NCBI RefSeq assembly: GCF_014637725.1
Contig: NZ_BMFC01000001.1
Span: forward strand, 436,632-500,631
Reading direction: 5' to 3'
DNA length: 64,000 nucleotides
Source of the DNA: Marivita lacus
Lineage (GTDB): Bacteria > Pseudomonadota > Alphaproteobacteria > Rhodobacterales > Rhodobacteraceae
Shown: in pieces, positions 58,555-64,000 of the stretch
Layout: every line of letters begins with the position of its first letter
How positions within the stretch are numbered: the first letter of the stretch is position 1
Translations under genes and position numbers: made by a program
The notes under the pieces: generated by a model
Told to the model about the DNA's origin: nothing
Database searches by the model: none
What the model saw: the letters and a program-made list of their open reading frames with translations, nothing else

Positions 58555-59631
58555 ATGGCTGATTTTGACACGCAGGTCCGCGAAAGCCAGGCGCAGGTGG
58601 CCGAAGCACAGGCCAAGATCGCGGAGCTGACAGGCCGGATCGAAACCGCCCGGAGCAAGATGAAAACGGGCGATGACATCACCTTCGACATCGAGAACGC
58701 AACGCTTGATGACGTGCACGCCCATACGGATGTGATGAACGCGAATATCGCGGAACTGATCATGGGTCTGGATGATGTGACCTCGGCGTTTTCCAAGGAT
58801 TTCGACGAGATGCGATCGAAGACCGGCTGGGAAAGCTTTGTCGGCATCTTTTCCAAGGGCAAATCGGAATCGATGCGGCAGGAGCGGATGAAGACCGCCT
58901 CCATCGACGACAAGCTTCAGGATCTGATCGCCAAGTCCGACGTGATCGTGACGCTGTTGCAGGGGCAATTGAACCTGCTCAACGAACAGAAGGACAAGGT
59001 CGAGGTGAACCTGTCGGAAACGCTGGACGAGCGCGAGGCGACGGTGGGTGAGCTTGAATCCGTGCGGGCCGAGATCCTGACGATGGACCCGAAGATCATC
59101 GAGTTGGAGAACAAGATCAGCGTCGAACAGGACGCCGCCACACGCACCAAGCTGGAGACCGAACTGGCCGAATTGAACGCCGCCTACAACGCGATGGTGC
59201 AGGACGAGCAGGTCAAGCTGGCCAAGTCACAGACGCTTGAGCGGTATATCGAGAAGGGCAAGACCTGGATTGACTCGCTTCAGAACCAGGCGGCGACGCA
59301 GATGGTGCTGATCAACAAGCTTCAGACCGACACGAAGCAGCGGGTTGTTCTGTACGATGCCTTGTCCAAGTCGCTTAAAACGGCGCAGCAGCAGGACGTG
59401 GCGCACCGGATCAACGAGATCGGCGTGAAGACCGATCAGGAGGCGCAATCGGCCATGGCCGGGATCGGCGCCGCGACCAACCAGCGGATGGCCGACATGC
59501 TGGAGAGCCACGAGGACCACATGGTCTTCGCCCGCGAGGTGCTGGAGGCCAAGGCCAAGGCGGATGAACGCTTTGCCCGCAGGTTCCAAGCGATCGTCGA
59601 GAAACATGACAAGAACCAGTATGGGGCATGA
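58555..59631 (+). CDS. Toxic anion resistance protein, TelA family
   Basis: 358 residues, nearly all alpha-helical with long coiled coils (DFDTQVRESQAQVAEAQAKIAEL; EVNLSETLDEREATVGELESVRAEIL). It matches TelA (PF05816) in the region SDVIVTLLQGQLNLLNEQKDKVEVNL and later ENQAA-like QNQAATQMVLINKLQTDTKQRVVLYDALSKSLK. No signal or membrane segment, so cytosolic. TelA is linked to tellurite and colicin resistance and other stresses, but its mechanism is unknown. ATGA overlap with the next gene. Confidence 0.85.
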   Translation: MADFDTQVRESQAQVAEAQAKIAELTGRIETARSKMKTGDDITFDIENATLDDVHAHTDVMNANIAELIMGLDDVTSAFSKDFDEMRSKTGWESFVGIFSKGKSESMRQERMKTASIDDKLQDLIAKSDVIVTLLQGQLNLLNEQKDKVEVNLSETLDEREATVGELESVRAEILTMDPKIIELENKISVEQDAATRTKLETELAELNAAYNAMVQDEQVKLAKSQTLERYIEKGKTWIDSLQNQAATQMVLINKLQTDTKQRVVLYDALSKSLKTAQQQDVAHRINEIGVKTDQEAQSAMAGIGAATNQRMADMLESHEDHMVFAREVLEAKAKADERFARRFQAIVEKHDKNQYGA

Positions 59632-60743
59632 CCACCGCGTCCAGTGATCACCGGGGGCTGCCTGACACCCAGGCCAGCCGTCGGTATTTTGCCAAGTTCG
59701 ACAGAATCCTGACCCATCTGGGCCGGGTGGCCGCGATGCTGCATGTGGAAAAGCGGCTGACCAAGACCGAGGTCGAGGTGCTGAGCCGGTATGTGATCGC
59801 GCTGAACCTGACGTTCCGGGCGCTGTCGATGAAGTACCTGCTGGTCGGGCGCGATACCGGGCAGTTTTTTGGATCGCTCACGATGGACGTGAAGGACAGC
59901 GGGTTTCCGACAACGACCGAATTGCTTGTCATGGCGAACGATGCCGCGCAGGCGGAGCAGCATTTGCGGTCGATGCCTTCGGTCGATGCGCTCAAGGACC
60001 GGATGGTGGCCGAGATCATCGGCGATCAGGCGATCCCGACACGGCTGCAATTCACCCTGAGCCAGCGGCTGTATTACGAGGAACTGGCGCGCGGCAAGCT
60101 GTTCTGGGCGCGCAACGATCCGCAATGCCTGTGGTTGTCGGGGGACGCGCGGCGGCGGTATTTGCTGCACTGGGGGGTCTATGACAGCCAGGTGAACCTG
60201 CCGGTGATCTACCTGATGGAGGTCGAGGACAGCGGGCGGGATGCCTTGCCCAAGGACGACCGGCGCTGGCCCGAAGCGCAGGCGCATCTGATGGCGCAGT
60301 CTCTGGGCGGTTTGAAATTGCTGACCATTGCCCAAGGGTTCGACGAGACCTTCGACGATCTGCACCCCAAGCGGCTGCGGCGGTTTCACATAGGGCCGAT
60401 GTATTCGCAATCCTTCACGCAGCAATCCGGGCCAATCCATGACGTGCTGGAACAGGCGCGCGCGCCCGAGGGGCAGGATTGGGCCTTGGCCTGGACGCTG
60501 GAAGATCTGGAAAGCGAACGGGTGCGGCAGGAGAAATCGGGCTGGTTTTCCAAGGTGGACCGCGAGGTGTTTGCGCTCGATCCGTTTGCCGGGCGCGGTG
60601 CGGAAACGGGTACCACGGCGACCGAGCGCATGGTGATCCTGCCGGAGCGTCCGTTTCAGGCCTTGGCGGAATTGAACCCCCCGGGCTTTGCCACTGTGCG
60701 CAAGTTCGTGGTGAACGATGCGGGGCGGGTGTTGAGTTATTGA
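59628..60743 (+). CDS. Unknown 371-residue protein of the telA-type operon
   Basis: Translationally coupled to telA by ATGA. I recognise no domain. The N-terminus (SRRYFAKFDRILTHLGRVAAML) is helical, and the later LHWGVYDSQVNLPVIYLMEVEDSGRD, RRFHIGPMYSQSF and ERMVILPERPFQALAEL look like a mixed alpha/beta enzyme or scaffold. No signal or membrane segment. The gene lies between TelA and the AAA ATPase and probably works with them. Confidence 0.7.
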   Translation: MTTASSDHRGLPDTQASRRYFAKFDRILTHLGRVAAMLHVEKRLTKTEVEVLSRYVIALNLTFRALSMKYLLVGRDTGQFFGSLTMDVKDSGFPTTTELLVMANDAAQAEQHLRSMPSVDALKDRMVAEIIGDQAIPTRLQFTLSQRLYYEELARGKLFWARNDPQCLWLSGDARRRYLLHWGVYDSQVNLPVIYLMEVEDSGRDALPKDDRRWPEAQAHLMAQSLGGLKLLTIAQGFDETFDDLHPKRLRRFHIGPMYSQSFTQQSGPIHDVLEQARAPEGQDWALAWTLEDLESERVRQEKSGWFSKVDREVFALDPFAGRGAETGTTATERMVILPERPFQALAELNPPGFATVRKFVVNDAGRVLSY

Positions 60744-60748
60744 CGGGG

Positions 60749-60768
60749 GGCCGGGCTGAAGCCCGGCC
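60749..60768. repeat. Hairpin GGCCGGGC-TGAA-GCCCGGCC, copy 2
   Basis: Eight-base arms (60749-60756, 60761-60768), the same as in the hairpin at 39397-39418. It is followed by a GAGTATTTTTGACAAGAAG stretch of the Roseobacter spacer type before the AAA gene. Confidence 0.7.
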
Positions 60769-60847
60769 TTCGCGGTGTTTCGGATGTTGCGAGAACGGCG
60801 AGCGGATTTGTGAGTATTTTTGACAAGAAGAAGCAGGGGATGCGCCC

Positions 60848-62782
60848 ATGTCTGTGACCTCGGATCTGATGGAACTGCGTGAAGACGCCATCCGCAAGCA
60901 TTATGCGGCAGCCAATGCCATGCTGGAGGGGTTCGACCACACGCCACGGGTGGCGTCTGGGGCGGAGCCTGCGACGCAGGAGCGGTCTTCGGGGATCGGA
61001 ACGCGGCGGCGGTTTCGGTCAACGACGCCGGGGCTGGTGACGCGGTCCACTGCGCGACCAGACGGCGTGCACCTGCTCGACCGGATTGCGGAGGCGGATG
61101 GGGATGATCCGCTCGTGTCGCCCGCGCAAGCGGCGGTGATGCATGGGCTGCGGCGGGCCTTGGGGATTGCGCTGGCGATGGGCGAGGCGGTTTCGGATGC
61201 CACGGGCCTTGGTGAGTTGAAGCGCGCGAATTTGCAGGGGTCGTTGGGTGCAGATCGGAAAGCGGAGTTTTCGGCTTTGCTGGAGGGTGAGGCGCTGGCT
61301 GTGGGGTATGTCTTCGCCAATGCGACGGCATTTCTGTTGGCGTCTCAGTCGTCGGAGGTGACGGTCGATGTGGGTGAGGTGCAGGAGGTGTTGACCGACA
61401 ATGCGCAGTTGGCCTTGCATGGGGCGCTTTGGGAGTTGGACCAGAAACTGGCGTTGCATGCGAGTGACGAGCCGCGCATGGTGGCGACCGTGCTCGCCTT
61501 TGCCGAACAGCTGATGGAGCGGATCGCGCTTCGGGCGCAGAACGGCGCGCGGACAGGAGCGTTCACCTCGGCCAATTGGCGGGTGGAGGCGGATGACCTG
61601 ACGCTGCGGGGCTTCACGCCTGCGACCAAGGCCAAAAGCACCACCCTTACCATGCAGTTCAAGAAGCCGAACGAGGTGGTGGGCAACCACATCGCCAAGT
61701 ACCAGGCGATGCGGCTGGCGAAGATGCTGATGGCCTATGACTTTGAACGAAGGCTCAACCCGTTTGCCGAACTCGGTGGGTTCATCTTTACCTTCATGGG
61801 GGATGGCGCGCCGGGGACGGGCAAGACGACGCTGATCCAGATGATGGCAGGGATGATCCATGAGTATTGCCAGAACGCGGGCTACACGTTCAGGTATCAG
61901 AATTTCGGCATCGACAATATCGACAGCTATCAGGGCAAGTCGGGGCAGAACGCGAAGGCGTTCATCAACAATGTGCTCGACCCTTCGGTGATCGGCTTCG
62001 GGACGATTGACGACATCGACCAGATCGCGGGCAAGCGCGGCGACCGGCAGTCCAGCGCGGGCCAGCAAGAGGTCACGGCGGTGTTCATGGAGGCGTTCGC
62101 GGGGGCCAATACGGTGGTGCGGGGGAACTGCACGTTCGGCATGTTCTCGAACTTTCCCGAGAACGTGGATGATGCGTTGCGGCAGCGGGCGGGGGCGCGG
62201 TTTCTTGTGGACGGGCCGCAGACGCGGGAGGATTACATCGACATCCTCGCGCTCTTGATGGGGCGCAAGCACGACATCCCGCTGGGCGATCACGAGCTTT
62301 ATGCGGCGCAAGCCATCCAGAAGGCGGTGGCGGCGTCGTTCGCGTCGCACAATCGGCCCAAGGAGCCGGGGCTTTTGGAGGTGTTCGACCGGGTGTCGTC
62401 GCAGATCGGCGCGCTCGACACGATTGCCAAGATGGGCACCTATCTCAAGGCCATTCAGGAGGCCGACCCGCGCTTTACGGGCCGCGCGATCAAGAACATC
62501 ACCGACGCGGTGAAGGTCCGCGCGATGGATTTCGAGTTGCCGGATGACTGGATGGAGCAGCCGGATCTGTTCCTGTTCAAACCGTATGACGAGAAGGCCG
62601 CGATGATCGAGGAATTGCGGCGGCCGATCACGACTCAAATGGTGATCCAGGAGATCAACCGCTACGCGGATTCCGAGTTCAGGTACGCGGACAAGTCGGA
62701 TGAGGTGGCGATCGAGGGGATGGTGCGGGACTTCGGGCGTCAGGAAGAGGCGAAGAAGAGATGGTTGGAGGGGAAGGGGTGA
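60848..62782 (+). CDS. AAA-family ATPase of the telA-type operon
   Basis: 644 residues. The ATPase core is in the middle: Walker A GAPGTGKTT at about 319-327, Walker B GFGTIDDIDQI at about 380-390, a sensor-like NCTFGMFSNF and an arginine-rich end RQRAGARFLVDGPQTREDY. The first 300 residues are a helical domain without known signature. The overall look is of a AAA ATPase that remodels something for the operon. Its stop overlaps the next gene (GTGA). Confidence 0.82.
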   Translation: MSVTSDLMELREDAIRKHYAAANAMLEGFDHTPRVASGAEPATQERSSGIGTRRRFRSTTPGLVTRSTARPDGVHLLDRIAEADGDDPLVSPAQAAVMHGLRRALGIALAMGEAVSDATGLGELKRANLQGSLGADRKAEFSALLEGEALAVGYVFANATAFLLASQSSEVTVDVGEVQEVLTDNAQLALHGALWELDQKLALHASDEPRMVATVLAFAEQLMERIALRAQNGARTGAFTSANWRVEADDLTLRGFTPATKAKSTTLTMQFKKPNEVVGNHIAKYQAMRLAKMLMAYDFERRLNPFAELGGFIFTFMGDGAPGTGKTTLIQMMAGMIHEYCQNAGYTFRYQNFGIDNIDSYQGKSGQNAKAFINNVLDPSVIGFGTIDDIDQIAGKRGDRQSSAGQQEVTAVFMEAFAGANTVVRGNCTFGMFSNFPENVDDALRQRAGARFLVDGPQTREDYIDILALLMGRKHDIPLGDHELYAAQAIQKAVAASFASHNRPKEPGLLEVFDRVSSQIGALDTIAKMGTYLKAIQEADPRFTGRAIKNITDAVKVRAMDFELPDDWMEQPDLFLFKPYDEKAAMIEELRRPITTQMVIQEINRYADSEFRYADKSDEVAIEGMVRDFGRQEEAKKRWLEGKG

Positions 62783-63099
62783 CGCTGTTTTCCGTCTTCA
62801 CGTTTGCCCTGATACTTGGCCTTTGCTTTGCTCTGCCTTCCGCACTGCCGGTGCGCCGTGACGCAACATGGAAAGGTTTGAAACGCTTTGCTCTCAGCGC
62901 ATTTGGGATTGGGATTATACTCGGACTTGCGAACTGGACGTATTTTCGTATTTCGGGCGACCCGGTTTTGGGACGTAGTTTCTCGTCCAACATGATCTTT
63001 TCTTGGGTGGGATCCGCCATACTTTGGGCACCTCTCCTTGCTATTCGTGTCATTCAGATTGCTGCCCGCGAAAGGCAGAGCTTGGAGGGGAACGGATGA
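62779..63099 (+). CDS. Small three-helix membrane protein
   Basis: 106 residues from GTG 62779, which overlaps the AAA stop (GTGA); GGAGGGGAAGG is upstream. Hydrophobic segments at about 4-22, 33-55 and 73-98 make three membrane helices. No known family. A/T-richer than the AAA gene. Overlaps the next gene by ATGA, so it is made together with it; an effector-and-membrane-partner relation is an inference. Confidence 0.65.
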   Translation: MTLFSVFTFALILGLCFALPSALPVRRDATWKGLKRFALSAFGIGIILGLANWTYFRISGDPVLGRSFSSNMIFSWVGSAILWAPLLAIRVIQIAARERQSLEGNG

Positions 63100-63851
63100 A
63101 TGGTGAACATCCTCTCTGGGCTGCGGGTCCTGCAGAACTATTGCAACATGGTATTTCACTGATTTCCGAGCAGTCAGATGCAAAGCGTCGTATTGCAATG
63201 ATCTTGGTCGATAATGCAGCCGAGCTGACCATGCAGACCTATTTGACACTACCAAAACGGGTCACTGGTTTACAACTTTCTAGACGCGAGCGGGACGAGT
63301 ACTGCAAAAACTTTCCTAGTCTTTTGGATGGTATCGAACAACACGCCAGTGACAAAATCATTGGTTTGAACTTAGGGGAATTTGAGTGGTTTCATAGATT
63401 AAGGAATGAACTTTATCATCAAGGTAATGGCTTAACGATTGAACGAAAAAACGTCGAAGTTTACGCAGAGCTATGCGAAAAGCTCTTCGAAGCGCTCTTT
63501 GGCGTCGAATTGGAAATTGTGTTCCCGGAGAATTCACATGCTGAGCTTATTGGCGAGTTTTTCGATTCTTGGATCAAGATTGAACGCCTACTGGCCCAAT
63601 GGGCACAGAACGGCAGGCACTCTTCATCTTCAATGAATGTCGTATCTTTAAATGAAGAAGGAGAACTTTCAGCGGCAGTTGTGATGACCTTTTCTGAGGT
63701 TCAGAAAATTCGAAATCAATTGATACATGGCGAAGCAGAAGTGGACGAAATGCTCCGAGACACCAACATGACGAAGATAAAACTTGTCGAGCATGCGGTG
63801 TCAGAAATGGCTGCGAGAAAACGTCAAAGATCGCAGAGTGACGAAACATGA
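63096..63851 (+). CDS. Protein with two HEPN-like RNxxxH motifs
   Basis: 251 residues from ATG 63096, with GGAGGGG upstream. Two helical repeats each carry a motif of the HEPN ribonuclease type: R103-N-E-L-Y-H108 in FHRLRNELYHQG and R206-N-Q-L-I-H211 in KIRNQLIHGEAE. R-x4-H with N after R is the classic HEPN catalytic signature. HEPN proteins are common RNases in toxin and defence systems. The gene is clearly A/T-richer than the flanking ones. Overlaps both neighbours by ATGA. Confidence 0.7.
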   Translation: MNGEHPLWAAGPAELLQHGISLISEQSDAKRRIAMILVDNAAELTMQTYLTLPKRVTGLQLSRRERDEYCKNFPSLLDGIEQHASDKIIGLNLGEFEWFHRLRNELYHQGNGLTIERKNVEVYAELCEKLFEALFGVELEIVFPENSHAELIGEFFDSWIKIERLLAQWAQNGRHSSSSMNVVSLNEEGELSAAVVMTFSEVQKIRNQLIHGEAEVDEMLRDTNMTKIKLVEHAVSEMAARKRQRSQSDET

Positions 63852-64000
63852 ACCGCCTCATCCAATCCGGCCTGATGTTCGGCAACCTGATCCATGTCAC
63901 CTCGCCGGCGCTCATCGAACGGTATAACAGGGCGCTCAAGCATCTCACGGGCAAGACCACGACCCAGACCGATTTCCACATCGACATTTCCGGCTTCTCG
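63848..64000 (+). CDS. DUF6638-like protein, N-terminal part (cut by window end)
   Basis: Only 51 residues are visible, starting MNRLIQSGLMFGNLIHVTSP and continuing ALIERYNRALKHLTGK. It overlaps the HEPN-like gene by ATGA. I recall such a start in a roseobacter family (DUF6638) found next to a AAA ATPase and TelA, but cannot verify it. G+C-richer than the gene before, so it looks like part of the older backbone. Confidence 0.6.
   Translation, partial: MNRLIQSGLMFGNLIHVTSPALIERYNRALKHLTGKTTTQTDFHIDISGFS

What the first reader, a model, noticed from the sequence alone, without database searches (positions are those of the whole stretch)
58555..64000. TelA - unknown - AAA ATPase operon with a membrane/HEPN cargo: candidate undescribed stress or defence system
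Six genes in one direction, with overlapping start and stop codons at four of five junctions, link a TelA-family coiled-coil protein, an unknown 371-residue protein, a AAA ATPase, a small membrane protein, a double-HEPN-like protein and a last gene cut by the window. TelA and AAA ATPases are known separately in stress or phage defence contexts, but I know of no description of this set. The membrane and HEPN genes look like a later insertion between backbone genes.
Basis: partly seen in the sequence, partly recalled or inferred. Interest (0 to 1): 0.75.

Follow-up and report, generated by a model that had tools for sequence, protein, structure and literature searches.

The report
ATPase operon with exchangeable toxin-like slot
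A four-gene bacterial operon built around an ATP-driven protein machine keeps its backbone across many marine bacteria but swaps the genes held at one exact junction, often for predicted RNA- or DNA-cutting or membrane proteins, which makes it a strong but untested candidate for an undescribed antiviral or stress system.

Summary
A core (coiled-coil protein, 371-aa protein, AAA ATPase, DUF6638) is colinear in 122 of 129 distinct loci (four cut by contig ends, three real exceptions) and recurs on S. meliloti pSymB and Vibrio jumbo plasmids. AAA and DUF6638 occur in 162 and 163 of 292 genomes, the same ones but one. The AAA-DUF6638 junction is a slot of -4 to 2382 bp (125 loci), filled in 110 of 125 by genes of 65 sequence clusters: a double-HEPN-like protein (this window), membrane/coiled-coil proteins, Mrr, DEDDh-BRCT, AbiJ-like, DUF2971, DUF433-PIN. 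Backbone DNA can match at 95% up to the AAA stop and again from the DUF6638 start while the cargo is unrelated. Thirteen congeneric genomes carry at least six kinds of cargo. Best reading: an ATPase chassis with interchangeable effectors (0.45); main rival: a housekeeping operon serving as landing site for independent genes (0.38). Defence is inferred from cargo identity only. No description was found in the searches made.

The parts
58555..59631 (+).
   Evidence: relatives in 15 of 15 distant loci and 5 of 5 plasmid loci examined
59628..60743 (+). Core gene 2: 371-aa protein without Pfam match (P371)
60848..62782 (+). Core gene 3: 644-aa AAA ATPase; Walker A, Walker-B-like DD, sensor N and arginine-finger region invariant in 9 sequences from Marivita to Vibrio (motif names recalled)
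62783..63847 (.). Exchangeable slot C (1065 bp here); GC 0.47 against 0.63 in AAA
62779..63099 (+). Cargo 1: 106-aa membrane protein, close homologues in congeners G920 and G922
63096..63851 (+). Cargo 2: 251-aa double-HEPN-like protein; R103-x4-H108 (codons 63402-63419) and R206-x4-H211 (codons 63711-63728)
63848..64000 (+). Core gene 4: DUF6638 (444 aa), cut by the window; complete at L002:8480-9814, followed by an 88-aa membrane gene (L002:9818-10084) and DUF1523 (L002:10097-10741)

Best explanation
Shown: a four-gene core (coiled-coil, P371, AAA ATPase, DUF6638) is kept together in nearly all loci seen, and the AAA/DUF6638 junction is a cassette position whose genes are exchanged while the backbone stays, usually on the sense strand and often with overlapping codons on one or both sides. 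Inferred: the core is an ATP-driven sensing and remodelling assembly that holds a cargo effector inactive and releases it when it senses infection or envelope stress. Here the effector would be a double-HEPN RNase, with the small membrane protein perhaps anchoring it, and RNA cleavage would stop growth of the infected cell. In other species the same chassis would drive Mrr or DEDDh nucleases, AbiC-like membrane proteins or a toxin-antitoxin-like pair. Exchange is by recombination in the flanking conserved genes (inferred from the break points).
For: AAA in 162 and DUF6638 in 163 of 292 genomes, the same genomes except G265, whose DUF6638 sits at a contig start; of 148 genomes with printed coordinates for both, 147 have them on one contig and strand within 1.6 kb; both in the same 10 plasmid records. 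Slot -4 to 2382 bp in 125 loci, while the DUF6638-DUF1523 interval holds one conserved 88-aa gene in 118 of 124. 110 of 125 slots hold cargo of at least 60 aa: 166 proteins, 65 clusters. Cargo start overlaps the AAA stop in 81 of 110 and cargo stop overlaps the DUF6638 start in 81 of 110, both in 59. Slot GC below AAA GC in 94 of 109 slots over 200 bp. In 81 pairs with AAA at least 93% identical, DNA homology breaks in slot C in 75 and in DUF6638-DUF1523 in 0. L103/L040: AAA 99.8% identical, about 95% DNA identity up to the AAA stop and from the DUF6638 start, cargo HEPN-like against DEDDh-BRCT. HEPN-like family: 6 of 6 strong matches in 169 genomes lie in this slot. Defence-related cargo: putAbiC, Mrr, AbiJ_NTD4, DUF433-PIN, DEDDh, DUF2971.
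Against: 11 of 122 operons have no cargo of 60 aa or more in any slot; three Vibrio plasmids and seven distant loci have none in slot C, so the core must have a use without it. Three loci break the core in uncut windows: L133 and L165 keep genes 1-3 but have no DUF6638 within 8 kb, and L144 has the AAA alone; in G211 AAA and DUF6638 lie on different contigs. Four of the six strong HEPN hits are training sequences of the profile or the same places; the independent count is 2 in the slot and 1 weak elsewhere. The A10 family also occurs outside the operon in 4 of 8 hits, weak A8 relatives in 8 of 10, and a HEPN-like relative sits on Leptospira plasmids. Mrr, DUF559 and DUF433-PIN are usually self-sufficient (recalled). 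No structure was obtained and no assay exists. Most large cargo proteins have no strong family match.
Confidence: 0.45

Rival explanations
1. The core is a housekeeping or envelope-stress operon, and the slot is only a favoured landing place: independent defence, toxin or membrane genes settle there because an overlapping start codon gives them expression without harming the neighbours. Cargo and core do not work together.
For: Cargo-free operons (11 of 122) and cargo-free distant versions; stand-alone types such as Mrr, DUF433-PIN and DUF559; a second variable slot between genes 1 and 2, broken in 60 of 81 pairs; A10 members elsewhere in 4 of 8 hits; the small 4TM family A9 stays near DUF1523 in 11 of 11 genomes that lack the core and had a strong A9 hit.
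Against: Independent strong HEPN hits lie in the slot in 2 of 2 cases and 11 of 11 strong A8 hits do too, at least two of them training sequences; I see one clear antisense gene (L162) among the 14 of 81 long slots where the antisense ORF was longer; overlap on both sides in 59 of 110, counted with a gene choice that favours overlap.
Confidence: 0.38
2. The variable genes are regulators, inhibitors or membrane adaptors of the core rather than effectors: many are small transmembrane proteins that set where or when the core acts.
For: 79 of 99 small and 39 of 67 large slot-C proteins have a predicted membrane segment (simple hydropathy); A9 persists without the core.
Against: Predicted nucleases (Mrr, DEDDh, HEPN-like, DUF559) are hard to read as adaptors.
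Confidence: 0.12
3. TelA-type tellurite or toxic-anion resistance operon.
Against: No PF05816 match; the genome's genuine TelA is elsewhere; profile-profile probability 0.3%.
Confidence: 0.02

Closest known systems
MoxR-vWA ternary conflict systems (PMC7159879, passages seen)
   Same: AAA ATPase core with a large set of interchangeable effectors
   Different: No vWA or MoxR match in this operon; effectors here are separate genes at one junction, whereas in the passages seen many are fused to vWA
CBASS with TRIP13-like ATPase (recalled)
   Same: Weak PADLOC TRIP13 match of the AAA (E 5e-5); varied effectors (recalled)
   Different: No nucleotidyltransferase match among the operon proteins
HEPN toxins and abortive-infection proteins (PMC3710099, passages seen)
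   Same: Rx4-6H with a polar residue after R, twice per protein, in the window's cargo
   Different: No Pfam HEPN family reaches its cut-off; the passages read do not mention this core
TelA/PF05816
   Same: Helical, coiled-coil-like protein of similar length
   Different: No significant homology found
Defence hotspots at fixed chromosomal sites (recalled)
   Same: Changing defence cargo at a constant site
   Different: Here the site is inside an operon, at a codon-overlap junction, and cargo mostly reads with the operon

Membership tests
TelA (PF05816) | match to the family profile | tested here: not met
DUF6638 (PF20343) | profile match above cut-off | tested here: met
   779 bits against cut-off 27
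AAA ATPase (PF00004) | profile match with conserved Walker A, Walker B, sensor and arginine region | tested here: met
   44.3 bits against cut-off 21.2; motif residues invariant in 9 diverse sequences (motif names recalled)
HEPN superfamily (cargo 63096-63851) | Rx4-6H motif with polar residue after R | tested here: met
   two RNx3H motifs, R, N and H invariant in 4 of 4; definition from PMC3710099
HEPN superfamily (cargo 63096-63851) | profile match to a described HEPN family | tested here: inconclusive
   no Pfam match at E<=0.01 for the window protein and no HEPN family at E<=1; homologue L038 HEPN_RiboL-PSP E 0.059, below cut-off; HEPN toxin chain E 0.6; PADLOC Csx1 E 0.0035
HEPN superfamily (cargo 63096-63851) | HEPN helical fold | not testable with these tools
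MoxR-vWA ternary system | MoxR-type ATPase and vWA partner | tested here: not met
   no such Pfam match among the operon proteins at E<=1
CBASS | CD-NTase in the operon | tested here: not met
   no nucleotidyltransferase match
Polymorphic-effector conflict system (general kind) | constant core with unrelated genes exchanged at one position | tested here: met
Polymorphic-effector conflict system (general kind) | demonstrated protection, or activation of the effector by the core | not testable with these tools
   needs bench work

The most novel reading that the evidence does not exclude
An undescribed family of conflict systems: a conserved AAA/DUF6638/coiled-coil chassis into which effector cassettes (HEPN RNases, Mrr and DEDDh nucleases, AbiC-like membrane proteins, toxin-antitoxin-like pairs) are exchanged at a single codon-overlap junction, so that one activation machine serves many killing outputs.
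Probability: 0.42. Interest if true: 0.87.

Novelty: new variant of a known kind. Interest (0 to 1): 0.72.

Why it matters
About half of the sampled genomes of this order carry the operon (162 of 292), and its slot is a ready-made catalogue of candidate effectors, most without a strong family match. If core and cargo work together, it is a chassis whose swap events are recorded in nature with break points at the flanking stop and start codons, so activation of many effectors by one ATPase becomes directly testable. If they do not, it is still a sharp case of a within-operon landing site for defence-type genes.

Tried and rejected
TelA membership: tested by Pfam scan, whole-genome PF05816 search, hmmsearch both ways and hhalign; rejected. 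A first hhalign used wrongly picked antisense frames and is discarded. Codon-usage scoring of cargo was uninformative, probably because cargo is AT-rich. A tRNA scan of L002 and an Rfam scan of L002:2000-11000 found nothing. The conserved interval after DUF6638 was suspected to be an RNA; it is an 88-aa gene. Solved-structure searches gave nothing at E<=0.001 for AAA and only E 0.1 or worse for the other core profiles; the A10 profile and one GHKL-like cargo gave nothing useful. No AAA or HEPN relative in phage records or, by the pattern scans used, in viral contigs. Promoter and terminator scans were at chance level. Paper searches: DUF6638/PF20343 no paper; in the other eight no listing pointed to this set. 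I read only passages of three papers.

On checking the draft I compared the coordinates printed and looked at the loci without a measurable junction. This turned up three loci and one genome where the core is split, which the draft had described as cut by contig ends; they are now reported. I also scanned the A8 family again: 3 of 14 members match putAbiC.
Full report
What is in the window. The last 5.4 kb hold six genes on the + strand. Their junctions overlap by 4 bases at four of five places; the 371-aa gene and the AAA gene are about 105 bp apart. The whole genome is held; the window is G000:C1:436632-500631, and L002 continues past its end. The cut gene is DUF6638 (PF20343, E 1.7e-234). 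After it come an 88-aa membrane protein, recognisable in 118 of 124 loci, and DUF1523. The nearest named relatives are Marivita, so I take the window's genus to be Marivita.

The TelA label fails. The 358-aa protein has no Pfam match to TelA at E<=1. The only PF05816 match of the genome is on contig C5; 14 of 21 genomes searched, this one included, have a genuine TelA. The operon family and the 14 genuine TelA proteins give hhalign probability 0.3%; the best whole-sequence hmmsearch E-value either way is 0.06, with a best single domain of 0.0019 in helical, coiled-coil-rich proteins. I call it a conserved coiled-coil-like protein of unknown family.

The core is kept together, with few exceptions. 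With the AAA as query, 162 of 292 genomes of the order match, by genus 64 of 112; DUF6638 matches 163 of 292. The matching genomes are the same except for G265, whose DUF6638 sits at the start of a contig. For 148 genomes both calls printed coordinates: in 147 AAA and DUF6638 lie on one contig and strand within 1.6 kb; in G211 they are on different contigs. The main set is 141 fetched loci of 7 to 20 kb, 129 distinct by AAA DNA. The first 61 all showed the five genes in order. In 122 of the 129 the four core genes are colinear. Of the other seven, four are cut by contig ends (L139, L149, L151, L154). Three are real exceptions: L133 and L165 have genes 1-3 but neither DUF6638 nor DUF1523 in the 8 kb downstream, and L144, a metagenome-assembled genome, has the AAA alone.

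Outside the order DUF6638 is rare: of 387 genomes of the class 9 match, 5 of them from the window's own family and one weak; of 299 of the phylum 24 match, 12 from the own family. I fetched 15 such loci, 14 from outside the family: the four core genes are present in 15 of 15, DUF1523 in 6 of 15. AAA and DUF6638 occur in the same 10 of 72,556 plasmid records: four Sinorhizobium, four Vibrio, one Shinella, one Rhizobium. The coiled-coil and P371 proteins are there too in 5 of 5 records examined. ATPase motif residues are invariant in 9 diverse AAA sequences (motif names recalled).

The slot. The AAA-DUF6638 interval ranges from -4 to 2382 bp in 125 loci; P371-AAA is under 150 bp in 111 of 128; coiled-coil to P371 ranges from -4 to 1152 bp in 125 loci and is a second variable slot (slot A); DUF6638-DUF1523 lies between 266 and 324 bp in 116 of 124. 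In slot C, 110 of 125 loci have cargo of at least 60 aa and 13 are shorter than 150 bp. Cargo starts overlap the AAA stop in 81 of 110 and cargo stops overlap the DUF6638 start in 81 of 110, both in 59. These gene choices come from a script that rewards overlap, so the counts lean upward. In slots of 600 bp or more the longest ORF is on the sense strand in 67 of 81; I read most of the 14 exceptions as chance antisense frames, but L162 has a 412-aa antisense gene. Slot GC averages 0.53 against 0.61 for AAA, lower in 94 of 109.

Exchange. In the genus, 13 of 17 genomes have the AAA. Their core proteins are 84-97% identical to the window's, but the slot holds: the HEPN-like gene (window); A8 members (G140, G053, G925); A10 members (G082, G917); a DUF433 plus PIN pair (G923; the same genome as L097, scanned); small membrane genes only (G920, G922); and different 168-, 196- and 202-aa genes (G918, G916, G919); G926, cut by its contig, shows only fragments. 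Over all loci, pairs with AAA at least 97% identical share any slot-C family in 2 of 12 cases, 93-97% in 26 of 66. Pairs are not independent. In eight close pairs chosen because they share no cargo family, DNA alignment stops within about 12 bases of the AAA stop and resumes within 2 bases of the DUF6638 start in seven and 35 bases before it in one. L103 and L040 are 99.8% identical in AAA protein and about 95% in flanking DNA, yet carry a HEPN-like gene and a DEDDh-BRCT gene. As a control, in 81 pairs with AAA at least 93% identical, homology is interrupted in slot C in 75, slot A in 60, slot B (P371-AAA) in 9, DUF6638-DUF1523 in 0, inside backbone genes 4 times, and in the flanks 114 times over 639 kb. 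The flanks are thus not quiet either, but no single flank junction was measured on its own.

What the cargo is. Slot C gave 166 proteins of at least 60 aa in 65 clusters; the 67 of at least 140 aa fall in 22 clusters. Of those 67 in Pfam at E<=0.01: putAbiC 5, DUF2971 3, RNase_T 2, DUF4145 2, HATPase_c_2 2, Mrr_cat 1, AbiJ_NTD4 1, DUF433 1, BRCT 1, Thioredoxin_7 1, and several weak matches to unrelated families that I read as noise. Of the 14 A8 members aligned, 3 match putAbiC. PADLOC at E<=0.01 listed 30 families, 25 shown, among them AbiP 5, PDC-S31 3, PDC-S48 2, DEDDh 2, type IV restriction 1. Of the 187 small slot-C and slot-A proteins I submitted 86; ten families matched, one member each, among them PIN_10, Phd/YefM antitoxin, RHH_1 and DUF4279. 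The window's 251-aa protein has R103-N-x3-H108 and R206-N-x3-H211, with R, N and H invariant in 4 of 4 homologues, as the HEPN review defines the RNase motif (PMC3710099, passages). The A10 family has an invariant R-x5-H in 9 of 9, which I read as HEPN-like without profile support. On S. meliloti pSymB the slot holds a DUF559 endonuclease (E 8.5e-35) and an IS element; five of nine loci of an unnamed alphaproteobacterial family show similar proteins, one of them tested and confirmed by Pfam.

Is cargo tied to this operon? In 169 genomes of the order the HEPN profile gives 7 hits: 6 strong, all in this slot, and 1 weak elsewhere. Three of the strong ones are training sequences (G000, G148, G012) and G015 has the same coordinates as the fourth (L103); the independent ones, G019 and G137, lie in the slot. 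A8: 11 of 11 hits below 1e-30 lie in the slot (at least two are training sequences), but only 2 of 10 weaker ones. A10: 4 of 8 in the slot (two are training sequences), 4 elsewhere. A9, a small 4TM family, matches 55 of 169 genomes and 32 of 125 slots. In all 11 genomes without the core that had a strong A9 hit, A9 lies within about 1.3 kb of DUF1523, with the 88-aa gene in 10 of 11; L256 keeps a 65-aa stretch resembling the coiled-coil gene (E 1.5e-5) next to it. A9 is thus better seen as an old resident of the locus than as cargo.

How it may work. Shown: conserved ATPase core, exchange of unrelated genes at one junction, mostly sense orientation, frequent codon overlap. Inferred: the core senses a threat and uses ATP to free or activate the cargo. 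For the window this means RNA cleavage by the HEPN-like protein. Varied effectors around an AAA core are known in MoxR-vWA systems (PMC7159879, passages), but no vWA or MoxR match is present here. Against this stand the cargo-free operons (11 of 122), the cargo-free Vibrio slot, the split cores, and cargo types that normally work alone. The choice between chassis and landing site needs the bench tests listed. Vertical descent of the backbone was not tested with a tree.

Novelty. DUF6638 or PF20343 appears in no paper of the library searched; the other searches listed no description of the set. The library lacks most subscription papers, so a description there could have been missed.

Noticed in passing
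L002:9818-10084 (beyond the window, between DUF6638 and DUF1523): A conserved 88-aa membrane protein fills an interval that looks intergenic; recognisable in 118 of 124 loci.
   Followed up: yes
L253-L263: Genomes without the core keep the 4TM A9 gene near DUF1523 (11 of 11; 88-aa gene in 10 of 11), one with a short stretch resembling the coiled-coil gene: possibly an eroded operon.
   Followed up: partly
L133, L165, L144; G211: Exceptions to the gene order: genes 1-3 without DUF6638 nearby (L133, L165), AAA alone beside other genes (L144), AAA and DUF6638 on different contigs (G211).
   Followed up: partly
junction of core genes 1 and 2 in relatives (for example L042, L084, L112): Second variable slot, mostly small membrane proteins; L040 and L107 share an 80-aa plus 140-aa pair there, and one protein of the scanned set matches Phd/YefM.
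   Followed up: partly
L265 (S. meliloti pSymB), L264, L266, L269 (Vibrio jumbo plasmids): The same core, annotated mostly as hypothetical proteins and ATP-binding protein, on named replicons.
   Followed up: partly
L173 (G000:C5:48427-49416): The genome's genuine TelA gene, unlinked to this operon.
   Followed up: no
L162, slot C: A 412-aa antisense gene of different composition inside the slot, the one clear exception to sense orientation that I saw.
   Followed up: no
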